Assembly (NCBI GenBank): GCA_951394045.1
Contig: OX595986.1
Location: 1,054,001-1,118,000 of the forward strand
Direction of reading: 5' to 3'
DNA length: 64,000 nucleotides
Source: Nitzschia sp. DOCU1
Lineage: Eukaryota; Bacillariophyta; Bacillariophyceae; Bacillariales; Bacillariaceae
Shown: one piece after another, positions 28,949 through 45,184 of the stretch
How the letters are laid out: every line of letters starts with the position of its first letter
Numbering within the stretch: position 1 is the stretch's first letter
The notes under the pieces: generated by a model
Told to the model about the DNA's origin: nothing
The model's input: only the letters and a program-made list of their open reading frames with translations
The model's database searches: none
Made by a program: the position numbers and the translations under genes

Positions 28949-31900
28949 ATGCGGGGAGTGGTCGCGTATCAGTTATCCAGCCTGCTGCTGTTGCTTCTCC
29001 CTCCAATATCAGCGCAGATAGTAGTAGACTCTATCATTCCTCCTGTTGTTTCCCGTGTCTTATCTGAATTCTTGCCTACGGGCGACATTGGTGATACGCA
29101 ATGCAATATTGAAGATTTGGAACGTGCCAATGACTCTCAGTTGCATGCGATTTTTCAGGAAATCCAACATACTCATTTCTTTCGATCCTTTGTGGTGGAT
29201 TTGGAGGAAAAGTGCCCCTTGCGGCATTGGAGGGCCAAATCGGCGCATGACAGTGAGCTCGAGGAAGAAGGAGAGGAATTCACCTGCTCTGGAGGTGCAG
29301 ATGAGCTGGACGAGGAGGCCGAGCCCCTATGCTCTGTAGATATTGGAGGGGATGCCTCAGACAACCCGTTTGGTGGGGGTGGGGGTACTGCGGAACCCTT
29401 TGGAGCAAATGTTTTGAAATCGCTGGTGGAGCACGGATTCTCGTCTCAGGGACAACAGGATACTTTTGACTGGAGTGATCAAACGGATATGATTGTTCGG
29501 GAAGATGAGACACCCTGCGATTCGGACGATGAGACTGTTTTGCCAGACACCTTTTGGATGGACATGTGCAGCAACATTCGAGCGCAAGAGAATGGAAGCA
29601 CGGCCAAGCTGGTCAATCTGGCATTGAACCCCGAACGCAACACGGGCTACAATGGGACGCATATTTGGAGGGCGATTTATGAAGAGAATTGCATCAGCAC
29701 ATCCGACGCTTGTTTAGAGGAGCGGGTTTTGTATCGACTCTTGAGTGGTTTGCATACGTCCACTACTATATCGATTGCCAAGAATTACTATCCGCCATCG
29801 AAACGCAAGGGACGCGTCGACTGGGAAGCCAATCCACGATACTTTATGGAAAAATTCCAACACCACCCCGAATACGTTAGAAATATGCACTTTGCCTACG
29901 TGGTGATGTTGCGAGCTATCAAAAAGGCCAGCGACTACCTTTACCGTTATGAGATTCAATCTGGAAATGCGGTGGAAGATAAAGCCAGTCAAGTGTTGTT
30001 GAAACGTCTGTTAGACACGAGCATTCTTCGAAGTTGCTCAAGCGTCTTTTCGGCCTTTGACGAATCGATCATGTTTCAGCAAGACAATGACTTTTCTCTC
30101 CAACATAACTTCAAGGGAGTCTTTCACAACATTTCGAGTATTCTGGACTGTGTGCAATGCCAGCAATGCAAGTTGCATGGCAAAATGGGCATGCTGGGAT
30201 ACGGGACAGCACTCAAAATCTTGTTTGTCAAGCCCGAGCTGATTGAGCTGGAACGCAACGAGGTTGTGGCTTTGATTAATACAGCGGCTCGATTATCAGA
30301 GAGTATGATCACAGTCCGGGAATTAACGCTCCAGTACTGGGCCGAGAAGCAACAAGAAGATGAGAAGGCTGCAGCTAAACTTGCTCAACCGTCGCGTCAG
30401 TCAGTGTCGTCGCCAGGTTATGAAGGAAGGGGCAGTACGTTTGGTCTTGAGAGCTTGGATATGGTGGACATGACAGTAGGCGTCATTGCTGAGCTGGGTA
30501 AAGCTGATGCGATTTCACTGGAGCGGGAGAGGGAATTGGTTGCGCTTGCGCTTAGCAAGCACCCGGAGTTATTGATTCTCGGAAAGCACTATGCCAACGA
30601 CGCTAGGCGTTTCCTGGCCATGTCTGCTTCGATAGGTACTTTGGGGGCTCGTGCCGACGAATTGCCCGATGCCATTGTCGTGGGTAGTGGCTTGGCGGGA
30701 TTGGCAGCATCACTCAATATTCTGGACCGTGGAGGTTCGGTCATCATCCTGGAAAAGGAACACTTGCTCGGTGGCAATTCCAACAAGGCCAGTTCGGGAA
30801 TCAACGGTTGCTGTCCCCACAATGATACCTACGATGACTCGTTGGATGCGTTCCGCAGCGATACCATTCGATCCGCCGGCGCGTTGGCTGACCTGGACTT
30901 GATTGAAACATTGGTCAGCAACAGTGAAAAGGCCGTTATGTGGCTGCAGCAACGAGCCAGCGTCGACTTGTCCCTCTTGGCTCAACTGGGTGGACACTCA
31001 CACAAACGAACTCATCGGCCCAACAATGGAATGGTCGGAGCTGAAATTATTTACCACATGCAGAAGGAGGTTCGCTCATACGAGAAGACGGGCAAAGTTA
31101 AGATTCTCCTTGACACCAAAGTCACAGGTTTGGTGACAGAGGAAGGGCGTGTGGTGGGCGTGACTTGTGAATCCACATTGGATGGTTCTGTTCAAGAACT
31201 TCGGGCGGACAATGTCATCTTGGCGACCGGTGGATTTGCTTCGGATCGATCGCCAGGATCGTATTTGGATAAAAATCGACCAGAGCTGATGGCCTTTCCG
31301 GCTACTGCTGGTGCCTTCTCAACTGGAGATGGTATCACATTGGCTACAGCTCTCGGTGCCGACACTCGTGACATGGACAAGGTTCAACTTCACCCCACCG
31401 GATGGGTCGATCCGACGGATCCCAGCAATCCCACCAAGATTTTGGCTGCCGAACTGATGCGAGGCGTCGGAGGTCTTCTCATCAACAAGGAAGGCAAGCG
31501 ATTCTGCAATGAGTTGGGAACTCGTTCATATGTAACAAACTCAATGCTGCAGCACAACAAGAAATTTGCCAGTACTGGGAAGTGGGATGTGAAGGATGAT
31601 GTGCCTACTTTTTATCTCGTGCTTTCCTCGTCAGCGGCCGCCGATGGCAAGAAACATGTTGATTTGTATAGCCACAAAGGTTTGTTGACAAAGGTTGAGG
31701 GCTTGGATGCCCTGGCTTCCAAAATGAACGTGAGCAAGATCGCGCTTCAAACAACACTCCAAAGCTACCAAAAGGCAGCGGGAGCCGGAAAGGACGAGTT
31801 CGGCAAGGTCTCATTCCGAGGGGCGCCCGCCAAGGACCTGACCAAGGAGACCTTCTATGTTGGAATGGTGACACCAGTCCTTCATTACTGCATGGGTGGC

Positions 31901-32377
31901 ATCAAGATCGACACTGAGGGTAATGTGTTGAAGGCCGATGGAACCGCCATTCCGGGTCTCCACGCGGCTGGCGAGGTTACCGGAGGTGTTCATGGCAACA
32001 ACCGTCTCGGTGGTAACTCGCTACTGGAATGCACCGTCTTTGGCACAATTGTTGGTCAAAAGATACCGGTGAAAAAACACGTTGAACTGGCCACAGCTTC
32101 TGTGTCAGAAAGCAAAAGCGCGAGCAAAGCAGACGAGCCGCTTCCTACCATCACCATGCAAGAACTTGCGAAGCACAATACGGAAGAAGACTTGTGGGTG
32201 GCCATCAATGGTGTCGTCTACGACTTCACAGAATTTGCACATGAGCATCCGGCCGGCTTTGACAGCATCTTTGATCTTGCTGGTACGGATGGCACTGTGG
32301 CGTTCGAGGCCGTGCATAACCAGGGAATGCTAGACGACTTTGAAGAAGAACGTAAAGGCGTCCTTGCTTCATCATGA
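28949..32377 (+). CDS. ERO1-fumarate reductase-cytochrome b5 fusion protein (ER lumen)
   Basis: One uninterrupted 1142-codon frame. Residues 1-22 are a signal peptide (LSSLLLLLLPPISA). Residues about 45-470 are an ERO1 thiol oxidase: TFWMDMCSN, IWRAIYEENC, FAD-contact SGLHTS (S266, H269), MLRAIKKA (R322), and the active-site CVQCQQCKLHGKMG (C401, C404, C407) followed by GTALKILF. After a helical linker, residues about 570-1035 are a soluble flavoprotein fumarate reductase. It begins DAIVVGSGLAGLAA (FAD site from D574) and includes QLHPTGW (H815), MRGVGGLLINKEGKRF, HYCMGG (H979) and HGNNRLGGNSL (R1019). Residues about 1065-1142 are a cytochrome b5 domain with haem ligands H1100 (EHPAG, where HPGG is usual) and H1123. 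ERO1 makes disulfides for PDI; FRD-type enzymes reduce fumarate to succinate. No KDEL-like tail is seen. No internal stop or start suggests two genes. Confidence 0.93.
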   Translation: MRGVVAYQLSSLLLLLLPPISAQIVVDSIIPPVVSRVLSEFLPTGDIGDTQCNIEDLERANDSQLHAIFQEIQHTHFFRSFVVDLEEKCPLRHWRAKSAHDSELEEEGEEFTCSGGADELDEEAEPLCSVDIGGDASDNPFGGGGGTAEPFGANVLKSLVEHGFSSQGQQDTFDWSDQTDMIVREDETPCDSDDETVLPDTFWMDMCSNIRAQENGSTAKLVNLALNPERNTGYNGTHIWRAIYEENCISTSDACLEERVLYRLLSGLHTSTTISIAKNYYPPSKRKGRVDWEANPRYFMEKFQHHPEYVRNMHFAYVVMLRAIKKASDYLYRYEIQSGNAVEDKASQVLLKRLLDTSILRSCSSVFSAFDESIMFQQDNDFSLQHNFKGVFHNISSILDCVQCQQCKLHGKMGMLGYGTALKILFVKPELIELERNEVVALINTAARLSESMITVRELTLQYWAEKQQEDEKAAAKLAQPSRQSVSSPGYEGRGSTFGLESLDMVDMTVGVIAELGKADAISLERERELVALALSKHPELLILGKHYANDARRFLAMSASIGTLGARADELPDAIVVGSGLAGLAASLNILDRGGSVIILEKEHLLGGNSNKASSGINGCCPHNDTYDDSLDAFRSDTIRSAGALADLDLIETLVSNSEKAVMWLQQRASVDLSLLAQLGGHSHKRTHRPNNGMVGAEIIYHMQKEVRSYEKTGKVKILLDTKVTGLVTEEGRVVGVTCESTLDGSVQELRADNVILATGGFASDRSPGSYLDKNRPELMAFPATAGAFSTGDGITLATALGADTRDMDKVQLHPTGWVDPTDPSNPTKILAAELMRGVGGLLINKEGKRFCNELGTRSYVTNSMLQHNKKFASTGKWDVKDDVPTFYLVLSSSAAADGKKHVDLYSHKGLLTKVEGLDALASKMNVSKIALQTTLQSYQKAAGAGKDEFGKVSFRGAPAKDLTKETFYVGMVTPVLHYCMGGIKIDTEGNVLKADGTAIPGLHAAGEVTGGVHGNNRLGGNSLLECTVFGTIVGQKIPVKKHVELATASVSESKSASKADEPLPTITMQELAKHNTEEDLWVAINGVVYDFTEFAHEHPAGFDSIFDLAGTDGTVAFEAVHNQGMLDDFEEERKGVLASS

Positions 32378-35695: not shown

Positions 35696-38600
35696 ATGGG
35701 CGACGACGAAAGCGAATATACAGAACGGACACTTTCCGAGGCCGAGGATGATCAGGAGGAACCGATTAAAGATGGTCGAGAGACTCAGTGGCCAAGTATG
35801 ATCAGTCGAGATGACCAAGATCGTGGAAGCAGCGTCTATGATACGAGTCCAAGTCGCAGCCAACGCAAAAGCGCTCCGAAACCCGACGATTTCAGTTTTG
35901 ATGACAACGACCAAGGTTCGCGTTCTCAGAGTCGAGGCTCCCAAAGTCGATCTTCTAGAAGTAGTTATTCTTCGCGCTCTCGGTCGCTGTCAAGATCAGG
36001 CTCCTCTCGGAGTAGTCAGAAATGGGGAAGCCAGTCATCTCGCTCAAGGTCGGGGTCGAGATCGCGTTCTTCGGGAGGGAGCCAAAGCCGGGGAAACAGA
36101 AGTCGGGCATCTTCGAGAAGTGGGAGTCCAAGTCGAGGAAGCCGATCCTCTCGCTCGCGGTCCCCTGGTTCTCGAAGTGGGTCGAGATCGCGTTCTTCTA
36201 GAGGTAGTCAAAGCCGGGGAAGCAGAAGTCGGGCATCCTCGAGAAGTGGAAGCCGATCGTCCCGCTCTCGGTCCCCTGGTTCTCGAAGTGGGTCGAGATC
36301 ACGTTCTTCTAGAGGTAGTCAAAGCCGGGGAAGCAAAAGTCGGGCATCTTCAAGAAGTGGAAGCCGATCCTCCCGTTCTCGGTCCCCTGGTTCTCGAAGT
36401 GGGTCGAGATCGCGTTCTTCTAGAGGTAGTCAAAGCCGGGGAAGCAGAAGTCGGGCATCCTCGAGAAGTGGAAGCCGATCGTCCCGCTCTCGGTCCCCTG
36501 GTTCTCGAAGTGGGTCGAGATCGCGTTCTTCTAGAGGTAGCCAAAGCCGGGGAAGCAGAAGTGGGAGTCCAAGTCGAGGAAGCCGATCCTCCCGTTCTCG
36601 GTCCCCTGGTTCTCGAAGTGGGTCGAGATCACGTTCTTCTAGAGGTAGTCAAAGCCGGGGAAGCAAAAGTCGGGCATCTTCAAGACGTGGAAGCCGATCC
36701 TCCCGTTCTCGGTCCCCTGGTTCTCGAAGTGGGTCGAGATCACGTTCTTCTAGAGGTAGCAAGAGCCGGGAGAGCAAAAGTCGCGCATCATCGAGGAGTG
36801 GGAGTCCAAGTCGAGGAAGTCGGGCCTCCCGTTCTCCGTCACCTGATTCTCGAAATGGGTCGCGATCGCGGTCTTCTAGAGGTAGCCAAAGCCGGAGAAG
36901 CAAAAGTCAAGTAAGCTTTGGAAGTCGATCCCGGTCCCAAGGGAGTGCAAGTAGCCGAAGCAGTCGTTCTGAAAGCAAGAGCAAGAAAAGTGGCTCTCGT
37001 GGCTCTAGGTCACAAAGGAGTGGCGATAGTCACAGCAGTTTTCGGTCGTCGTCGCAACGGAGCTTTCCTACCGAGTCAAAAAGCAAGTCAACGAAAGATT
37101 CTCCCACTGGTTCACAGTCCCGAAAGTCTGTCAGCAGTCGGAGAAGTAAACTTTCCTCGTCACAGCGGAGTTCCCTGTCACAGTCAAAGAGCAAGTCATC
37201 CACAAAAAGGGGTAGAGACTCTTTCAGCCGTTCGCGGTCTCGATCTTCTGGTAGCAGTCGGAGTAGCAGCCGATCGTCGTCGCAGCGGAGTTCGCGGTCC
37301 CGATCTTCTGGTAGCAGTCGGAGCAGCAGCCGTTCGTCGCCACAGCGGAGTTCTTTGACCGAGTCGAAAAGCAAGTCGTCAACGAAAAGTAGTCGAGACT
37401 CTCCTAGCGGTTCGCGGTCCAAACGGTCTGAGAGCACTCGAAGCAGCCCCCGATCGTCGTCACAACGAAGTTCTCTAACTGAGTCACGAAGTAAATCTTC
37501 TACGAGGGGCGATCGCGAGTCTTCAACCTTCCAAGAGGAGAGCACCTTGACTCGAAGTAAAATCTCCAGCCAAAGCGGTGGTGATACGCCCAGTTATGAC
37601 GAGAGTACTTTTAACGAAGAAAGTACTTACGAGGCTAGCACTTTTCGGGATCGGAGTACCCGGGATACTCCCAGCTTTAGAGATGAGAGTACCTTCACCG
37701 AGACAAGCACGTTTCAAGCAAGTGACCGCTTCACTCCCAGTTTCCAGGAAGACACAGTCAAGGACGATAGCACTTTTGCCGATGAAAGTCTCACGGATAG
37801 AAGAAAAAAAGATGACGACGATAGTACTTTCTCCGATGAAAGTCTTGACGATAAAGAAGAACCGGATTCAAAGCGATCACAAAGGGCTGAAAGTAGCAGC
37901 AAACGAGGCGTCGGCAAAAAGAACGGGAAGGTCGAAACTGAAGTGTCAGCTACGCAACGTTTTGGCAGCTCCTCGAGTAGTTCTTCCGAAGAGAAGGACA
38001 AAAAAGTGCAAGGTACTACAGCAAGCCCGAAACATAAATCACGATCAAAGACGGCGAAAGCTAAAGTGTCGGCGAAGCAACGTTTTGGGAGCTCCTCGAG
38101 CAGTTCTTCGAGTAGTGCATCCGAAGAACGGGCCAAGAAAGTGCAACGTCCTACAGCAAGCCCGAAGCATAAGTCACGGTCAACCAAGGCGAAAGCAAAG
38201 GATACCAAAGAGATTCTCTCGAAGATCAGTCCAAAGTCGCACACTGAGAGAAGCAAGGATTCCACATCTCCAACAATTCGAAGAGGATCCAGAGATAAAA
38301 CATCTCCGGTTGGAACCAAGGCGCCTGCACCGCAGCTGCATCAATCGTCGGGGAGGGACAAAGGAGAAATCAAGGTGCTGATTGAACCGGTGGTCAAAGT
38401 ACAACGATGCAAGTCTCTTGCGATTTTGGGGACAATGTCCGATGCTGGTAAATCAATAATTACCGCCGGTCTGTGTCGCGTGTTGTCCAATCATGGAGTT
38501 AAAGTTGCACCATTCAAGGGCCAGAACATGAGCAACAATGCAGCTCCTGCCCTCTTGCCCGACGGTGAACGACGCAGAAGATTGTACAAATGTTTTCAGA

Positions 38601-40123
38601 AAGTGATCGGAAGTGAATTCCCGTCACCTTTGTCTGATTTACCCGAAACGGGGTACGGCGAAATCGGCACCGCTCAATCCCTTCAAGCGGAAGCATGCCG
38701 ACTGATACCAAGGGTTGAAATGAACCCGGTTCTACTTAAGTCGGGAGGACAAAACGAGAAGGGAGAATTCATGTGTAGTGTCCTCGTGCTGGGCAAACAA
38801 GTTGTACGAGAAACATATGGCGACCTTGGGAAACGGACAACCGATTTGCGTACAATGGTTCTTGAGTCGCACCAGGCGTTGGCAGAGGTGACGGATTGCG
38901 ATGTAGTGCTTATGGAAGGAGCCGGGAGTTGCACAGAACTGAATTTGATGGAACGAGACATTGTAAATCTTCCACTGGTTCGGTCACTCCAGTGTCCGTG
39001 GTTGCTGGTTGCGAACATCGACTGCGGGGGTGTATTTGCTCAAATTGTCGGAACAAAGATGTGTGTCTCGGTTAGAGACTGGTCTCTCTGTGTCGGTATC
39101 GTTGTGAACAAGCTACGAGGCGAGGCGAAATACTTCGAGCCAGGACCGAAAATGATCGAGGTAAGAGTGCGCCACTACGATGATTTTACAATGTCTCCAT
39201 TTGCTAATCGCTGTTACTGGAAGGAAATGGTCGGTAAACCTGTTTTTGTCGTCCCATTCTTAAGAGATTTAAACTTGCCAGAAGAGGATGGTATGGGGAC
39301 AGAGCGTCGTCTGGCATGGGAGGCCGCTGGCCACCATCATCCCGATACGGAGGACGAAAATGCGCGCGACAAGAAACCTGTTGTGGTTGTGATTGCCTAC
39401 CCTCATACTGCAATCTCAGACGACCTATGTCCACTTGAAGGCGACCCTCGATTTAGGGTGGAGTGGAGACGGCGACGAATCCCTCGACCATACCCGCATA
39501 CAACTTCAGTTATTTTGCCAGGGTCTCGATTGACACGGAAGGACTTGAAATGGTTACATGATTCTGGTTGGGTTGCATTCCTTCGAAAGCATGTGAGCGC
39601 GGGTGGGGGTATTCTGGGTATATGCGGTGGATATCAAATGCTGGGTTGGTCCGTGGACGACCCTGACGGCGTTGAAGGGTTTGCGGGAGGCAGACAAGGA
39701 TTAGGACTACTGCCCGTTCGAACAAAGATTGCGCGGCCAGAAGTAAAAGTTGTCGCCCCACGACAGGGGAAACTATACCCTTCTGGCACCGTTGTTCAGG
39801 GGTTTGAATTACATTGTGGCCAGAGTCAAATTGTCACTGAACTTGGCCAACCCTTGCTTGACCACATACACCCAATGATAGTCTTTGACGACGGAAAGCC
39901 CGAAGGCATGTGCTCACGAAATGTTCGTGGAACGTACATGCATGGAGTCTTATGGTCGCCAAGTGCTCGAGTGGAACTGTTAATACCCGACAAAGCGGAA
40001 TTCCCGGCGCTCGGGAAGGTTAAGGTGCAGGATCCCCTTGATCGATTGGCTGAGCATTTGGAAAGTTGTGGACTCGATTTTGAAACATTGCGGCGCATGA
40101 TCTCGTCTCATAGAAACAGATAA
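35696..40123 (+). CDS. SR-repeat/cobyric acid synthase (CobQ) fusion protein
   Basis: The 1475-codon frame opens at MGDDESEYTER. Residues about 60-560 are Arg-Ser-rich with a 37-residue tandem repeat, then come Ser/Thr/Asp-rich blocks (DESTFTETSTF) and two copies of a QRFGSSSSSSS...TASPKHKSRS block. From about residue 905 the sequence is CobQ, which amidates cobyrinic acid side chains to cobyric acid. It has the P-loop GTMSDAGKS (912-920), PFKGQNMSNNA, GEIGTAQSLQAEA, MNPVLLKSGG, VVLMEGAGS, NIDCGGVFAQ, and the class-I amidotransferase GICGGYQMLG (C1310), GFELHCGQ and GTYMHG (H1416). About 30 extra residues follow NNAAPALLPDG. A 63-nt stretch (39161-39223) looks like an in-frame intron. No Met lies between the SR part and the CobQ P-loop, so a separate CobQ start is unlikely in this frame. 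Confidence 0.85.
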   Translation: MGDDESEYTERTLSEAEDDQEEPIKDGRETQWPSMISRDDQDRGSSVYDTSPSRSQRKSAPKPDDFSFDDNDQGSRSQSRGSQSRSSRSSYSSRSRSLSRSGSSRSSQKWGSQSSRSRSGSRSRSSGGSQSRGNRSRASSRSGSPSRGSRSSRSRSPGSRSGSRSRSSRGSQSRGSRSRASSRSGSRSSRSRSPGSRSGSRSRSSRGSQSRGSKSRASSRSGSRSSRSRSPGSRSGSRSRSSRGSQSRGSRSRASSRSGSRSSRSRSPGSRSGSRSRSSRGSQSRGSRSGSPSRGSRSSRSRSPGSRSGSRSRSSRGSQSRGSKSRASSRRGSRSSRSRSPGSRSGSRSRSSRGSKSRESKSRASSRSGSPSRGSRASRSPSPDSRNGSRSRSSRGSQSRRSKSQVSFGSRSRSQGSASSRSSRSESKSKKSGSRGSRSQRSGDSHSSFRSSSQRSFPTESKSKSTKDSPTGSQSRKSVSSRRSKLSSSQRSSLSQSKSKSSTKRGRDSFSRSRSRSSGSSRSSSRSSSQRSSRSRSSGSSRSSSRSSPQRSSLTESKSKSSTKSSRDSPSGSRSKRSESTRSSPRSSSQRSSLTESRSKSSTRGDRESSTFQEESTLTRSKISSQSGGDTPSYDESTFNEESTYEASTFRDRSTRDTPSFRDESTFTETSTFQASDRFTPSFQEDTVKDDSTFADESLTDRRKKDDDDSTFSDESLDDKEEPDSKRSQRAESSSKRGVGKKNGKVETEVSATQRFGSSSSSSSEEKDKKVQGTTASPKHKSRSKTAKAKVSAKQRFGSSSSSSSSSASEERAKKVQRPTASPKHKSRSTKAKAKDTKEILSKISPKSHTERSKDSTSPTIRRGSRDKTSPVGTKAPAPQLHQSSGRDKGEIKVLIEPVVKVQRCKSLAILGTMSDAGKSIITAGLCRVLSNHGVKVAPFKGQNMSNNAAPALLPDGERRRRLYKCFQKVIGSEFPSPLSDLPETGYGEIGTAQSLQAEACRLIPRVEMNPVLLKSGGQNEKGEFMCSVLVLGKQVVRETYGDLGKRTTDLRTMVLESHQALAEVTDCDVVLMEGAGSCTELNLMERDIVNLPLVRSLQCPWLLVANIDCGGVFAQIVGTKMCVSVRDWSLCVGIVVNKLRGEAKYFEPGPKMIEVRVRHYDDFTMSPFANRCYWKEMVGKPVFVVPFLRDLNLPEEDGMGTERRLAWEAAGHHHPDTEDENARDKKPVVVVIAYPHTAISDDLCPLEGDPRFRVEWRRRRIPRPYPHTTSVILPGSRLTRKDLKWLHDSGWVAFLRKHVSAGGGILGICGGYQMLGWSVDDPDGVEGFAGGRQGLGLLPVRTKIARPEVKVVAPRQGKLYPSGTVVQGFELHCGQSQIVTELGQPLLDHIHPMIVFDDGKPEGMCSRNVRGTYMHGVLWSPSARVELLIPDKAEFPALGKVKVQDPLDRLAEHLESCGLDFETLRRMISSHRNR
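36100..36900 (+). repeat. 111-bp tandem repeat encoding a 37-residue SR unit
   Basis: Six near-identical units are anchored by the word TCCCCTGGTTCTCG at 36161, 36272, 36383, 36494, 36602 and 36713, with a seventh diverged unit near 36837. Spacing is 111 bp, with one 108-bp and one 123-bp step, always keeping the frame. Units differ by silent and few replacement changes, consistent with recent in-frame expansion. Confidence 0.88.
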
Positions 40124-40132
40124 TTGAGCTAG

Positions 40133-42373
40133 CTAGCCCCCCTCGGAGAATATTCCTACCAAGTAAGGCCTTGCCATTCTGAGTCTGTCTTTGAAATGAA
40201 ATCGTTCGAATAAGGCCGTGGCATCAATCCCTGCCATCTTCTGAATGATAATGTCACCTCCAGGATGTTCTTCGCTAAATTGAGTCAGATTGTAGACTCC
40301 GCCATGGATCACTACCCAGCAGTCCTCCCCAGAATTATGCAGCTCCACATCTCGTTTAGTAATTGGCTGTAATTCACGACGGTTCACACGGCTGTCTGAT
40401 GCTGTCTGGGTCGACCTGTCGCCGAATTGACCCACGACACGCCGGTCCACAATTGCAAGAACATTGGGCGAATGAACTCCAGCGAAAATGTCGGTAGCAT
40501 CGATTCCACATATTGTCGATATGGAAGTTTTCCCGCCTGGGTGCTGCTCAATGAAAGTCGTCAAGTCATACACATCCCCGTGCAGACCCACAAAGCAGTC
40601 TTCGGGAGTGCTATGTTCAGCCAATTCACCGAGAGTGAAATTTTTCTGCGGCTTGGTCGCATGAGACGAAAAGAAATTGGTGCGCCGTGCGTTTAGATCC
40701 ATGTAACCAAGGACATGAACGCTCTTCCCGACAATGCTCCCGAACACAGCACATTCCAGCAGTGAGTTTCCTCCAAGACGATTGTTTCCATGAACGCCTC
40801 CGGCAACTTCTCCTGCCGCATACAGGCCAGGGATCTTGCTTCCATCGTCGTTCAACACTTCTCCCATAGCATTGATACGGAGGCCGCCCATGCAGTAATG
40901 AAGAACAGGAGTCACTTCTCCAAAGTAAAACTCTTCGGATGCCAGGTCATCTGCAAAAACACTGTCAAAGTCGGCCCTGCCAAACGGATCTGTTGAATTT
41001 CCCGCCGCAACGCTCTGATAATCTTGGATAGTTGCGGTGAGAGTTTCTAGCGGAACATCCAACGATGCAGCTAGGCTTTCCAAACCAAAATACTTCTTCA
41101 TCAGGCCCTTTCTCAGATAGGTGTCCATGTGCTTTTGTGACTTCTTGGCCGCTTCAGAGGACATGAGCAGATAGAAGGTTGGAAGTGGACTTTCTGGGTT
41201 CCACACACGAGACTCTCTGTAGTTGGCATCGTGCTCCAGCATCTTGTCTGTTATATAATCTCGGTATCCTAGTTCATTGCAAAATCGTAGGCCGTCATGG
41301 TTCAGCAAGATACCTCCTACGCCTCGCAGCAATTCGGCCGCCAAAACTTTGTGAGCACTCGTGGGATCGGCAGGATCCACAAAGCCCGTAGGATGGACTT
41401 GAATTTTATCCATATCTCGAGTACCGGCTCCCAACTCTCGGGCTAAATGGATCCCGTCCCCAGTCGAATACAATCCTGCAGTGGCCGGCATGTTTTGAAG
41501 TTCAGGGCGATATTGACGCAGTAGCGAGCCCTCGGAACGATCTGAGGCGTAGCCTCCCGTCGCTAGAATGACAGTATCGCTTCGCAGTAGCATGGACGCT
41601 TCATCATCTTCAGTCTGAATTTGCACGCCTCTGGCAATTCCCTCGGAGTCCTTGACGACTTGTGTCACCCTAGTCTTTGTAAGGATGCGAGCATATCCTC
41701 GTGACTCATACCCTTGGATGGCCATTTGCATGGCATTCATTAGCTCAGCGCCAACAAATCCAGTGGTTGGTCGATGAGTACGTTTCCGTGAGTGCCCTCC
41801 AAGCTGTGCCAATGGCGCCGATAGATCGACGCCGACTCGTTCTCGCAGCCATTTCACAGTATAAGCACTCTTTCGTACCAAAGTGACGACAAGAGCCGGA
41901 TCAACCGCATCCCCCGCCGATGCCAAAGTATCTTGATGAAAAAGATCAAGAGTATCATTGGTGGCTCGAGTCAATAGTGCAATGTCCCCATCTTCATAAC
42001 AGCATGCATTGATTCCCGAACTGGCCTTGTTGGAGTTGCCGCCAAGGATCGGTTCCTTTTCGACGACGACGACAGTTCCACCTCGATCCAAAATGTGAAG
42101 GGCGGCCGTCAGACCCGCAAGACCGCTGCCGACAATAACGGCATCCGTAACTGGCCTTTGTTCAAAGAAAGAAATATTATTGTCGACCGGTGTCGCATGT
42201 GTTGCTGCCGCTGCGGCGGCTGCAGCAAAAGATATAATCGGTAATGACCGACCAGACGACCCAAAACCGCAGCAAGATAACAACGTGATGAGCACCAGCA
42301 GAGCACCAGGGCTGTGACGCTCCCAAACGCTACCACCGCCCCCTTGTCGTCTTCGTAGTAGTAACGATGACAT
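40133..42373 (-). CDS. Fumarate-reductase-like flavoprotein with two cytochrome b5 domains, membrane-anchored
   Basis: Single exon, about 746 residues from the ATG at 42373 (MSSLLLRRRQ). The frame to 42415 would need TTG. An N-terminal hydrophobic segment (GALLVLITLLSCCGFG) acts as signal or anchor. The flavoprotein domain begins DAVIVGSGLAGLTA and carries GGNSNKASSGINAC, QVHPTGFVDP, LLRGVGGILLNHDGLRF, HYCMGGLRI and HGNNRLGGNSL. The FAD and fumarate-site residues are those of soluble fumarate reductases. Two cytochrome b5 domains follow, with EQHPGG (His about 609) and EEHPGG (His about 703) and second haem histidines in GVHSP and RFHFKD. It stops 10 bp from the convergent CobQ gene's stop codon and is a tandem paralogue of the gene upstream on the same strand. 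Confidence 0.9.
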   Translation of the reverse strand: MSSLLLRRRQGGGGSVWERHSPGALLVLITLLSCCGFGSSGRSLPIISFAAAAAAAATHATPVDNNISFFEQRPVTDAVIVGSGLAGLTAALHILDRGGTVVVVEKEPILGGNSNKASSGINACCYEDGDIALLTRATNDTLDLFHQDTLASAGDAVDPALVVTLVRKSAYTVKWLRERVGVDLSAPLAQLGGHSRKRTHRPTTGFVGAELMNAMQMAIQGYESRGYARILTKTRVTQVVKDSEGIARGVQIQTEDDEASMLLRSDTVILATGGYASDRSEGSLLRQYRPELQNMPATAGLYSTGDGIHLARELGAGTRDMDKIQVHPTGFVDPADPTSAHKVLAAELLRGVGGILLNHDGLRFCNELGYRDYITDKMLEHDANYRESRVWNPESPLPTFYLLMSSEAAKKSQKHMDTYLRKGLMKKYFGLESLAASLDVPLETLTATIQDYQSVAAGNSTDPFGRADFDSVFADDLASEEFYFGEVTPVLHYCMGGLRINAMGEVLNDDGSKIPGLYAAGEVAGGVHGNNRLGGNSLLECAVFGSIVGKSVHVLGYMDLNARRTNFFSSHATKPQKNFTLGELAEHSTPEDCFVGLHGDVYDLTTFIEQHPGGKTSISTICGIDATDIFAGVHSPNVLAIVDRRVVGQFGDRSTQTASDSRVNRRELQPITKRDVELHNSGEDCWVVIHGGVYNLTQFSEEHPGGDIIIQKMAGIDATALFERFHFKDRLRMARPYLVGIFSEGG

Positions 42374-42784
42374 CGTCCGGTTGTGTTGCGGCAAACCAAA
42401 GAGATTGATGACCAAAGAATGAGATTTTGACCATTTCGCAACTTTCGATCTTGGGATGGGGGTGCCTTGGCGGAGTCATGACGCAGAGGATTTGCTGCCA
42501 TAAATGTTTCTGTTCAGCAAGACCGCCAGGTCTGAAAATGTCTTTTCCACGCATCCTTGAGTATAACTTGTATACAAATATTGTCAATTAACAAGGAGGC
42601 TTAGATGATTTTTCATTTAGGGCCTTCCCTCAAAACTTGCCGCCACTACTGGAATCTTGTGACCATCGACATCGCCATCTATCCATCTCAATGCTGTACT
42701 CGCTACTCTTTTTCGCGGTATTAAAGAGAATAAATGACACAACCACCTACCGGTCACTAACTTGTGATTACTCACAACCTCTAC
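42374..42784. other. Intergenic spacer between tandem fumarate-reductase-like genes
   Basis: 411 bp, presumably promoter and 5' UTR of the downstream gene plus the 3' UTR of the upstream one. Nothing else seen. Confidence 0.45.
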
Positions 42785-45184
42785 CTAGCTGTCGTCAACG
42801 AATTTGCCCACCAGGAATGGTTTCACCAGGCTCAGTTTGTCTTTTGGATGAAAGACTTGGTACGCCTCGGTGGCGTCCTTGCCTGCCCGTTTTTGAATAA
42901 TGTAAGCACCGCCGGGGTGCCCTATGGCAAATTCGGTCAAATCGTAAACATGTCCAAAGATTACCACCCAACAGTCCTCGATCGAGTTGTGTTGTTTGAG
43001 CACTTGTTTAGAAATGACTTGGAGTTCTTCTTCTGCTTCGGACTTGAATGTCGTGGCGACCTTGGCAGATTGTTCTGTGAGAGTACCGACACCGTGTTGT
43101 TCTACTTTTGTCAAAAGTTGGACAGAGTGGACACTGGAAAAGATTTCGGTAGCTTCTAGTCCACATAAGGACGTAATTGAGGTCTTGCCTCCTGGATGAC
43201 GCTCAATGAACAAAGTGAGGTCGTACACTTTGCCCTCCAGACCGACAAAGCAATCGTCTGGGCGATTGTGTTTGGCCAGGTCGTCCAACTTGAATTCTAT
43301 TTGTGGCGTCAAAATCTTGGGAGGACTTTGTTGCTGATGTTGTGATGCGGGTGCGATATTTGAACCAGGATGCTGTTTCTTCACTGGAATGTTGTTGCCA
43401 ACAATGCTTCCAAAGACGGCACATTCTAGCAGTGAATTACCACCCAATCGATTGTCGCCATGAACCCCACCCGTGACTTCTCCAATAGCATAGAGACCCG
43501 CAATGACGCTTCCGTCGCTGCGTAAAACTTGGCCCGACGGATTGATCTTGAGACCACCCATGCAATAGTGAAGTACAGGAGTCACCTCGCCGACATAAAA
43601 GTCTTGTTCTTCCAGATCTGCATGGTTGAAAAGGCCTTCAAAGACCGTCTTTCCGAATGGATCCGAACCACCCCGAGAGGCAAAGGACTGGTACTCTTGG
43701 AGGGTGGCGGCCAAATCTTTGAGAGGAATGTTCAAGTGCCGTGCCAGATTGGACAATCCATGATACTTGGTGATAAGGCCTTTGCGCGTGTACGTGTCAA
43801 CATGCTTTTGCGCTTTGATCGCCGCTTGGGATGACAAGAGCAAATAAAAGGTAGGAATGGGCGCATCGGGCTTCCATTCTCGCCGTTGTTTGTATTCGGC
43901 ATTATGTTCCAGCATTTTATCGGTCACATAGGATCGCGTCCCCAGTTCATTGCAAAATCGTTGTCCCATTTGATTCAATAGTATGCCACCGACTCCTCTC
44001 AATAGTTCGGCTGCCAAGACCTTGTTGGGGCTAGTAGGATCGGCTGGATCGACAAACCCAGTGGGATGAATCTGAATCTTTTCCATATCCCGCAAGGTAG
44101 CCCCAAGATTGGACGCCAAATGAATCCCATCCCCTGTCGAAAACAAGCCTGCCGTGGCGGCCATGTTTGCAAGTTCTGGTCGATATTGACGTAGCAGCGA
44201 TCCTGGAGAACGATCGGAAGCAAAACCACCCGTCGCCAGAATCACAGAATCACTTCGTAACCATTCGGTTTCTCCCTTATGATTGTCCACTACTTGCACG
44301 CCCCGTACTTGATCCAGTGAATCTTTCCCAAGAGTTGTAACTTTGGTGTCGACGAGTATTCGAGCGTAGCCTTTGGCTTCATATACTCGAATGGCTGTTT
44401 CCATGGCATTCATCATTTCGGCGCCCACAAAGCCTACCATGGGCCGATGTGTCCGTTTTCGAGAATGACCTCCCAGTTGTACCAGTGGCGCCGTGAGATC
44501 CACACCCACACGTTGTTCGAGCCATTGAATAGCTGATGCACTGTGATGAACCAGGGTTTCAATCAAGGGGGCATCTGCCACGGATCCTGCCGATCGAAAG
44601 GTGTCTTGTACAAATAACTCTAACGTATCATTTGTGGCTGGATTGAACATTGCAGATGTATTGCCGTCTTGAGTGCAGCATCCATTGATTCCTGAACTAG
44701 CCTTGTTCGAATTGCCACCAAGAATGGGCTCCTTTTCGACCAGAATGACGGTCCCACCTCGATCCAAAATGGTAAGAGCCGCCGTTTGACCCGCTAGACC
44801 ACTGCCGACAATAATCGCATCCGCCATGGGTGGCATTTGAAGGAAAGCTGTTAAGGATGACGACGACGATGACGACTTGTGGTCATGGTGGCCGCGAAGA
44901 GGAGGGTGTTTTAGTAATTCGTCGGCATGATGTATCGTCGTGGTCTCGTCGTCTAGAAGAAGAATCTTGTGCGCTTGTTGCTGCTGATGGTTAAGTTGAC
45001 TACTCGAAGAGGACAATGACGTCCAGTAAAACAAAATTGCCGATAACACAAACAGAGCCAGTCCAATCACAATCTTGTCAGGAAAAGCAGGGTGTTCTTT
45101 TCGCTCCCAGCGATGTCGATGCGGACCCCGACTCAGTTGTGTTTGCAATGGTGAAGGACGTCGGCGGGCATTTACAAACGTCAT
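42785..45184 (-). CDS. Fumarate-reductase-like flavoprotein with two cytochrome b5 domains, type II membrane protein
   Basis: Single exon, 799 residues. A basic N-terminus is followed by one clear membrane span (IVIGLALFVLSAILFYW, residues about 38-54), then a Gln/Ser-rich linker, so the rest is predicted to face the ER/Golgi lumen. The flavoprotein domain starts DAIIVGSGLAGQTA and contains QIHPTGFVDP, LLRGVGGILLNQMGQRF, HYCMGGLKI and HGDNRLGGNSL. Paired cytochrome b5 domains at the C-terminus carry ERHPGG (His about 662) and IGHPGG (His about 754). Domain order and sequence match the neighbour at 40133-42373, and the FRD-b5 part matches the ERO1 fusion, so all three derive from a common FRD-b5 ancestor. 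Lumenal fumarate reduction or another electron-transfer role is inferred. Confidence 0.9.
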   Translation of the reverse strand: MTFVNARRRPSPLQTQLSRGPHRHRWERKEHPAFPDKIVIGLALFVLSAILFYWTSLSSSSSQLNHQQQQAHKILLLDDETTTIHHADELLKHPPLRGHHDHKSSSSSSSLTAFLQMPPMADAIIVGSGLAGQTAALTILDRGGTVILVEKEPILGGNSNKASSGINGCCTQDGNTSAMFNPATNDTLELFVQDTFRSAGSVADAPLIETLVHHSASAIQWLEQRVGVDLTAPLVQLGGHSRKRTHRPMVGFVGAEMMNAMETAIRVYEAKGYARILVDTKVTTLGKDSLDQVRGVQVVDNHKGETEWLRSDSVILATGGFASDRSPGSLLRQYRPELANMAATAGLFSTGDGIHLASNLGATLRDMEKIQIHPTGFVDPADPTSPNKVLAAELLRGVGGILLNQMGQRFCNELGTRSYVTDKMLEHNAEYKQRREWKPDAPIPTFYLLLSSQAAIKAQKHVDTYTRKGLITKYHGLSNLARHLNIPLKDLAATLQEYQSFASRGGSDPFGKTVFEGLFNHADLEEQDFYVGEVTPVLHYCMGGLKINPSGQVLRSDGSVIAGLYAIGEVTGGVHGDNRLGGNSLLECAVFGSIVGNNIPVKKQHPGSNIAPASQHQQQSPPKILTPQIEFKLDDLAKHNRPDDCFVGLEGKVYDLTLFIERHPGGKTSITSLCGLEATEIFSSVHSVQLLTKVEQHGVGTLTEQSAKVATTFKSEAEEELQVISKQVLKQHNSIEDCWVVIFGHVYDLTEFAIGHPGGAYIIQKRAGKDATEAYQVFHPKDKLSLVKPFLVGKFVDDS

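What the first reader, a model, noticed from the sequence alone, without database searches (positions are those of the whole stretch)
28949..32377. Natural fusion of ERO1, fumarate reductase and cytochrome b5
One uninterrupted frame encodes a signal peptide, an ERO1 domain with the C401-x2-C404-x2-C407 active site and FAD contacts, a complete soluble fumarate reductase and a b5 haem domain. Yeast work has shown that the separate ER protein Osm1 supplies fumarate as an electron acceptor for Ero1 when oxygen is scarce. A single chain would channel electrons from dithiols through ERO1-FAD to FRD-FAD and fumarate, giving oxygen- and peroxide-free disulfide formation in the ER. The b5 domain offers a second electron entry or exit. 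I know of no described ERO1-FRD fusion, but cannot search.
Basis: partly seen in the sequence, partly recalled or inferred. Interest (0 to 1): 0.95.

Follow-up and report, generated by a model that had tools for sequence, protein, structure and literature searches.

The report
Diatom ERO1–fumarate reductase–cytochrome b5 fusion
Diatoms carry a protein in which a probable disulfide-making enzyme of the ER is fused to a probable fumarate reductase, which suggests, but does not yet show, that it can form disulfide bonds without oxygen.

Summary
One uninterrupted frame (28949-32377, +) encodes 1142 residues: hydrophobic leader, ERO1 domain, conserved helical linker, flavocytochrome-c-type fumarate reductase (FRD), cytochrome b5. 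It is no assembly artefact: the 120 listed relatives (of 385) all carry the three domains, 11 rows come from transcriptome sets, and the rows with a readable name or taxid are diatoms of five classes. In 121 of 121 sequences the ERO1 CxxCxxC, the six Osm1 catalytic residues and both b5 haem ligands are present. ERO1 and FRD trees show no supported conflict. The only other ERO1 locus found in the genome is stand-alone; its relatives carry a plastid-type leader motif (55 of 65 testable), the fusions do so no more than shuffles (14 of 72). So the fusion is the likely ER enzyme. Ten full-text searches showed no description of it. Likeliest function: thiol oxidation by ERO1 with electrons passed to FRD and fumarate, as shown for separate yeast Ero1 and Osm1 (PMC6242907). 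Function, ER location, b5 route and luminal fumarate are inferred. Whether non-diatoms have the fusion was not resolved.

The parts
28949..32377 (+). ERO1-FRD-cytochrome b5 fusion gene, one uninterrupted frame, 1142 aa
   Evidence: 120 listed homologues (of 385) with the same domains
28949..29014 (+). hydrophobic N-terminal leader, residues 1-22, probable ER signal peptide without Phe at +1
   Evidence: read by eye; family comparison; no signal-peptide predictor available
29141..30307 (+). ERO1 domain, residues 65-453
   Evidence: PF04137 E 7.2e-83; yeast Ero1p alignment
29285..29332 (+). C113 and C128, probable shuttle dithiol (CX14C)
   Evidence: present in 119 of 121 sequences, 2 gapped; assignment as shuttle pair is inference
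30149..30169 (+). ERO1 C401-x2-C404-x2-C407 with active-site pair C404/C407
   Evidence: 121 of 121; aligned to yeast CVQCDRC
30443..30625 (+). linker module, residues 499-559, predicted compact four-helix bundle, no named family
   Evidence: block means of pLDDT 88-94 over 501-560; conserved in 24 sampled relatives; no credible Pfam or PDB match
30668..32059 (+). soluble fumarate reductase domain, residues 574-1037
   Evidence: PF00890; TIGR01813 over cut-off; Foldseek best hit Osm1 5glg; H815 E835 R838 R859 H979 R1019 in 121 of 121
32153..32362 (+). cytochrome b5 domain, residues 1069-1138, haem ligands H1100 and H1123
   Evidence: PF00173; both His and HPxG in 121 of 121
42785..45184 (-). 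paralogous FRD with two b5 domains and an N-terminal hydrophobic segment (context, not part of the fusion)
40133..42415 (-). second paralogous FRD with two b5 domains (context)
30380..30586 (+). part of the linker that also exists as a 99% identical 207-bp copy on contig C8; two end pieces of it occur elsewhere on C8 and on C51

Best explanation
It is the ER thiol oxidase of diatoms, hard-wired to its own terminal reductase. The ERO1 half takes electrons from PDI-type dithiols through C113/C128 to C404/C407 and its FAD (inferred from family). Instead of, or besides, giving them to O2, it passes them within the chain, probably by way of the b5 haem, to the FRD flavin, which reduces fumarate to succinate (inferred). 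This would be the cis version of the yeast Ero1-Osm1 pathway. Shown here: architecture, key residues, conservation, and trees compatible with joint inheritance. Inferred: function, ER location, b5 as bridge, fumarate as the physiological acceptor.
For: All three domains complete by profile and key residues present in 121 of 121 sequences. ERO1 and FRD parts: distance correlation 0.878; 36 and 36 splits supported at 0.95 or more, 26 shared, 0 conflicting. The separate yeast proteins do this reaction: Osm1 takes electrons from Ero1 FAD and fumarate sustains anaerobic disulfide formation (PMC6242907, sections 9 and 11). Most of Osm1's pocket for free flavin is not conserved (W295 to T829, F297 to I831, N359 to H903, F362 to L906, P162 gapped; K76, S78, L298, Y363 kept); both FRD-b5-b5 paralogues also lack F297/F362, while the b5-less paralogue L004 keeps them. 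That fits a donor inside the chain rather than diffusible FADH2. The only other ERO1 locus found in the genome belongs to a group with plastid-type leaders, leaving the fusion as the likely ER enzyme.
Against: No biochemical, localisation or expression data for this protein. A fumarate supply to the diatom ER lumen is not shown. In yeast a haem-domain chimera of Osm1 that no longer bound Ero1 still supported anaerobic thiol oxidation with Ero1, so physical contact was not strictly needed there (PMC6242907, section 11). [quoted passage not shown] Typical b5 potentials (near 0 mV, recalled) sit above that of FRD flavin (about -150 mV, recalled), so the b5 step could be uphill. The model here has pTM 0.55 and no coordinates were available, so FAD-haem-FAD distances are untested. 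Loss of the aromatic pocket is shared by FRD-b5-b5 paralogues, so it is tied to b5 rather than to ERO1. Congruent trees alone would also be expected of two separate vertically inherited genes. ERO1 may simply use O2 most of the time.
Confidence: 0.6

Rival explanations
1. The fusion serves only co-localisation or stoichiometry: ERO1 uses O2, and the FRD-b5 half is an independent luminal fumarate reductase fed by another donor through b5.
For: Two FRD-b5-b5 genes without ERO1 lie in the same window, so FRD-b5 proteins exist without ERO1 in this organism. Domain co-inheritance does not prove electron transfer.
Against: No luminal b5 reductase is known to me (recalled). Key residues on both sides in 121 of 121 and a conserved structured linker favour a working coupling. 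Yeast Ero1 and Osm1 interact directly, if weakly (PMC6242907, section 9).
Confidence: 0.18
2. The FRD half reduces another unsaturated acceptor (enoate, urocanate-like or unknown) and not fumarate, so ERO1 is coupled to a different sink.
For: Relatives of the same fold act on urocanate, vinyl phenols and ketosteroids. Fumarate in the diatom ER is not documented here.
Against: The six residues that matter for fumarate reduction in Osm1/Fcc3 are invariant; best sequence and fold hit is Osm1; TIGR01813 over cut-off.
Confidence: 0.12
3. Electrons pass through free FAD: FRD reoxidises diffusible FADH2 that ERO1 releases or uses, as the second Osm1 route.
For: Shown for Osm1 (PMC6242907, section 8). 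K613, S615, L832 and Y907 of the pocket are kept (all four in 120 of 121).
Against: W295, F297, F362 and N359 equivalents are replaced and P162 has no equivalent; in 121 sequences the first three positions hold T/S/G/N/Q, I/V/T and L/H/M, never Trp, Phe or Tyr.
Confidence: 0.07
4. Gene-model or assembly artefact.
For: ERO1 chimeras of doubtful reality do occur in databases: of 20 long ERO1 proteins, mostly fungal, 13 carry another Pfam domain, and three chytrid records even share one (PF01138).
Against: This architecture recurs in all 120 listed relatives, including 11 transcriptome-derived rows and contigs of unrelated projects, with a conserved linker and compatible domain trees.
Confidence: 0.01

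Closest known systems
Yeast Ero1p plus Osm1 (soluble fumarate reductase), anaerobic disulfide formation (PMC6242907)
   Same: Same two enzyme families; ERO1 CxxCxxC and six FRD catalytic residues conserved; Osm1 is the closest solved structure to the FRD part by sequence and to the model by fold.
   Different: One covalent chain with a helical linker module and a b5 domain instead of two proteins with Kd 150-200 uM; most of Osm1's free-FAD pocket not conserved; Osm1 has no haem domain.
Flavocytochrome c3 (Fcc3/FccA) of Shewanella
   Same: FRD of the same subfamily (TIGR01813) with a haem domain on the same chain.
   Different: Haem domain is C-terminal b5, not N-terminal multihaem c (recalled); a thiol oxidase is attached at the N-terminus.
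FRD-b5-b5 proteins of the same genome (window 40133-42415 and 42785-45184)
   Same: FRD 58-61% identical to the fused FRD, C-terminal b5.
   Different: Two b5 domains, no ERO1, hydrophobic N-terminal segment (by eye).
Stand-alone diatom ERO1 (L009 1519-2797, spliced, 397 aa)
   Same: ERO1 family with CxxCxxC.
   Different: CX4C pair (CYSETC, by eye) where yeast has its shuttle, no FRD or b5, leader with plastid-type motif.

Membership tests
ERO1 (PF04137) | Profile match over curated cut-off | tested here: met
   279.1 bits against 27
ERO1 (PF04137) | Active-site CxxC within CxxCxxC | tested here: met
   C401/C404/C407, 121 of 121
ERO1 (PF04137) | FAD-contact residues of yeast Ero1p (R187 T189 Y191 W200 S228 H231 R260; list recalled) | tested here: inconclusive
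   Six of seven present here (R230 T232 Y234 W240 S266 H269; all six identical in 112 of 121, 2 gapped, 7 differ at the first). R260 aligns with K302 (K 98, R 18, Q 4, N 1 of 121), a mostly conservative change. One search had tested R311 for R260 by mistake.
ERO1 (PF04137) | CX4C shuttle dithiol as in yeast and human (recalled) | tested here: inconclusive
   C113-X14-C128 conserved in 119 of 121 (2 gapped), spacing differs
ERO1 (PF04137) | Thiol oxidase activity on PDI in the ER | not testable with these tools
   needs purified protein and localisation
Soluble fumarate reductase / flavocytochrome c (TIGR01813) | Profile match over curated cut-off | tested here: met
   381.4 bits against 285.45
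Soluble fumarate reductase / flavocytochrome c (TIGR01813) | Six catalytic residues H365 E378 R381 R402 H504 R544 (Fcc3 numbering) | tested here: met
   H815 E835 R838 R859 H979 R1019, 121 of 121
Soluble fumarate reductase / flavocytochrome c (TIGR01813) | Fumarate reduction | not testable with these tools
   needs assay
Osm1-type free-flavin-oxidising FRD | Second FAD pocket W295 F297 L298 N359 F362 Y363 K76 S78 P162 | tested here: not met
   4 of 9 residues kept here (K613, S615, L832, Y907)
Cytochrome b5 | PF00173 match and two axial His | tested here: met
   69.7 bits against 23.7; H1100 and H1123 in 121 of 121

The most novel reading that the evidence does not exclude
Diatoms split their ERO1s: the stand-alone enzyme went to the plastid, and the sole ER enzyme became a single-chain dithiol:fumarate oxidoreductase in which electrons run dithiol, ERO1 FAD, b5 haem, FRD FAD, fumarate. 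[quoted passage not shown]
Probability: 0.4. Interest if true: 0.93.

Novelty: new variant of a known kind. Interest (0 to 1): 0.82.

Why it matters
How cells make disulfides in the ER without oxygen is open; a Plant Cell paper (PMC9516139, passages read) says that the electron acceptor under its hypoxic conditions remains unclear. Yeast gave a weak trans interaction (Kd 150-200 uM) with FADs more than 20 A apart in docking, and its authors call direct transfer controversial (PMC6242907, section 11). A conserved natural fusion is 'Rosetta stone' evidence that the ERO1-FRD link is physiological, and supplies a single chain in which electron transfer can be measured directly. It could also bear on how diatoms keep secreting protein in dark or anoxic places, and it brings up an unexpected plastid-type ERO1.

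Tried and rejected
Artefact of assembly or gene model: rejected for the family. Chance fusion: rejected.

Search for fusions outside diatoms: one search used a yeast Ero1 core padded to 1409 aa to select long ERO1 proteins. It gave 20 hits, 0 with PF00890, but it also failed to recover the known diatom fusions, so its negative says nothing. The other two protein searches listed 120 of 385 and 120 of 456 matches, so deeper lineages were not seen. The whole-genome collections on hand hold prokaryotes, apart from the window's own genome.

Linker module: no Pfam match for the window's linker; scattered Pfam hits in 1-2 of 24 members each, best E 0.001; PDB only at E 1.2 with one sequence and at E 0.019, to a designed protein, with the profile. 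A single-sequence model of residues 493-572 gave four helices at mean pLDDT 63.2; not searched further.

Leader motif: a first, cruder version gave 47 of 62 for the stand-alone set. With Trp, Tyr or Leu also allowed for Phe the counts are 62 of 65 and 42 of 72, with no shuffle control.

Geometry: the AlphaFold2 model (pTM 0.55) came without coordinates, so FAD-haem-FAD distances could not be measured. Collecting calls before it was ready: 36, 41, 44, 48, 50, 53, 55, 57, 60, 63; for the second model, 79; only waited.

Full report
Observation. The frame 28949-32377 (+) is open for 1142 codons. Pfam finds ERO1 (65-453), FAD_binding_2 (574-1025) and Cyt-b5 (1069-1138), each far over its cut-off. 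The FRD half passes the NCBIfam flavocytochrome c cut-off. By sequence, Osm1 and yeast Ero1p are the closest solved relatives of the two halves; by fold, the model's best PDB match is Osm1 5glg (E 4.2e-33, TM 0.85 by target length).

Is it real? The protein search returned 385 relatives, of which the best 120 were listed; all 120 listed rows show PF04137, PF00890 and PF00173, at 52-80% identity and 829-1388 aa. The readable ones and those with a taxid are diatoms: Nitzschia, Cylindrotheca, Pseudo-nitzschia and Mayamaea (raphid pennates), Asterionellopsis glacialis, Thalassiosirales (Cyclotella, Skeletonema, Thalassiosira, Detonula confervacea, Mediolabrus comicus), Leptocylindrus danicus and Stephanopyxis turris. 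The seven taxa looked up fall in five classes of Bacillariophyta; the other groupings are recalled. Eleven rows (P0015, P0031, P0034, P0044, P0066, P0085, P0088, P0089, P0093, P0094, P0096) come from MMETSP sets, which are transcriptomes (recalled). The 265 unlisted relatives were not seen.

Active sites. On a MAFFT alignment of 121 sequences (window plus 120), the ERO1 C401/C404/C407 are in 121 of 121, the putative shuttle pair C113/C128 in 119 (2 gapped), the six FRD residues H815 E835 R838 R859 H979 R1019 in 121, and b5 H1100/H1123 in 121. The six FRD residues correspond to Osm1 H281 E301 R304 R326 H435 R477, each of which is needed for full activity in Osm1 (PMC6242907, section 7). Of seven recalled flavin contacts of yeast Ero1p six are kept (identical in 112 of 121, 2 gapped, 7 with another residue at the first); the seventh, R260, is K302 here and K, R, Q or N in the family. 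These 121 were picked as the best hits to this query, so they favour intact copies.

Inheritance. Pairwise distances of the ERO1 and FRD parts correlate at 0.878; separate trees share 61 of 116 splits, and of 36 and 36 splits with support 0.95 or more, 26 are shared and none conflict (119 sequences, P0069 and P0119 left out because their N-terminal part is missing). This fits one fusion inherited within diatoms. It would also be expected of two separate vertically inherited genes, so the fused state itself rests. The whole-protein tree groups the named diatoms as expected.

Linker. Residues 457-574 have a median length of 113 (91-153) in the family. Mean pairwise identity is lower in the linker (0.40) than in ERO1 (0.67) or FRD (0.70), but residues 499-559 form a confident four-helix module in the model with a clear consensus and no known family.

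Which ERO1 works in the ER? The genome search found two ERO1 loci: the fusion, and a stand-alone gene at C2:2979.5-2980.8 kb matched in two pieces (such searches ignore introns and give lower bounds). The stand-alone gene reads as two exons (L009 1519-1875 and 1961-2797, splice sites by eye). A search with its 397-aa product gave 456 relatives, 120 listed, all with PF04137 as the only Pfam domain; named rows are diatoms. Five named taxa appear in both lists (Cylindrotheca closterium, C. fusiformis, Mayamaea, Thalassiosira profunda, Nitzschia sp. Nitz4). In diatoms a Phe directly after the signal-peptide cleavage site marks plastid import (recalled). Among sequences starting with Met and having a hydrophobic 9-mer near the N-terminus, a small-x-small-Phe pattern occurs in 55 of 65 stand-alone proteins (107 of 120 started with Met; shuffle mean 21.2, maximum 33) and in 14 of 72 fusions (108 of 121 started with Met; shuffle mean 19.5, maximum 28). 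With W, Y or L also allowed the contrast shrinks to 62 of 65 against 42 of 72, without a shuffle control. So the stand-alone type looks plastid-bound and the fusion looks ER-bound. This is a rough proxy, not a trained predictor; 36 of 108 Met-starting fusions had no clear leader, some of them probably wrong starts.

Donor site. Osm1 has a second flavin pocket (W295 F297 L298 N359 F362 Y363 K76 S78 P162; PMC6242907, section 8). In the fusion W295, F297, N359 and F362 are replaced by T829, I831, H903 and L906, and P162 has no partner; K613, S615, L832 and Y907 remain. The two FRD-b5-b5 paralogues also lack F297/F362 equivalents, while the b5-less paralogue L004 keeps both, though not W295, N359 or P162. 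With one b5-less and three b5-bearing proteins this is suggestive only: b5 seems to replace free flavin as the donor. PMC6242907 proposes that Ero1 sits on Osm1 where the Fcc3 haem domain sits (section 9). In the diatom chain both a haem domain and ERO1 are present, so the haem may bridge the more than 20 A gap of the yeast docking model (section 11). This is inference. Against a strict need for contact, the same section reports that an Osm1-haem chimera that lost Ero1 binding still mediated anaerobic thiol oxidation.

Mechanism proposed: PDI dithiol, C113/C128, C404/C407, ERO1 FAD, b5 haem, FRD FAD, fumarate. Shown here: the parts and their conservation. Known in yeast in trans: Ero1 to Osm1 to fumarate. 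Inferred: cis transfer, b5 order, luminal fumarate, ER location.

Literature. Ten searches of the open full-text library were made. 'ERO1' + 'fumarate reductase' + 'fusion' gave 3 papers; 'ERO1' + 'diatom' + 'fumarate' gave 0; 'ERO1' + 'periplastid' gave 0; 'ERO1' + 'Phaeodactylum' 5; 'ERO1' + 'Osm1' 8; 'ERO1' + 'cytochrome b5' + 'fumarate' 11. One search showed 20 of 2,337 and one search showed 8 of 15. No title or abstract start in these listings describes an ERO1-FRD fusion; the bodies of most were not read. Read: PMC6242907 (abstract, find passages, sections 7, 8, 9, 11) and PMC9516139 (find passages). Subscription papers and preprints were not covered. One entry, P0012 (Cylindrotheca closterium), is named 'fumarate reductase (NADH)' in UniRef, so the fusion is in databases under a partial name.

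Verdict. Novelty: a new variant (covalent, with b5) of a known two-protein pathway.

Noticed in passing
L009:1519-2797 (G000:C2, about 2979.5-2980.8 kb): Stand-alone diatom ERO1 with a plastid-type leader motif; 55 of 65 testable relatives share the motif. A plastid ERO1 would be surprising, since plants use a VKOR-type enzyme there (recalled).
   Followed up: partly
window 30380-30586; G000:C8:1846990-1847196; C8:1865643-1865747; C51:25078-25182: A 207-bp piece of the linker region is copied at 99% identity to contig C8, within 1 kb of an ORF that looks gag-like by eye (L007), and its two end pieces lie together elsewhere on C8 and on C51: possible capture of a host gene piece by a mobile element.
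   Followed up: partly
window 40133-42415 (-) and 42785-45184 (-): Two neighbouring genes for fumarate reductase with two b5 domains each; at least the second has an N-terminal hydrophobic segment. Their donors and compartment are unknown.
   Followed up: partly
G000:C2:3980681-3982180 (L004) and C2:4283318-4284844: b5-less FRD with a secretory-looking stretch upstream of the FRD domain and an inner Met just before it, reminiscent of dual-located Osm1; the second locus looks like a related copy matched in pieces.
   Followed up: no
window 35696-40123 (+): 1475-aa ORF with CbiA and GATase_3 (CobB/CobQ-like) domains towards the C-terminal end, between the fusion and the FRD-b5-b5 genes.
   Followed up: no
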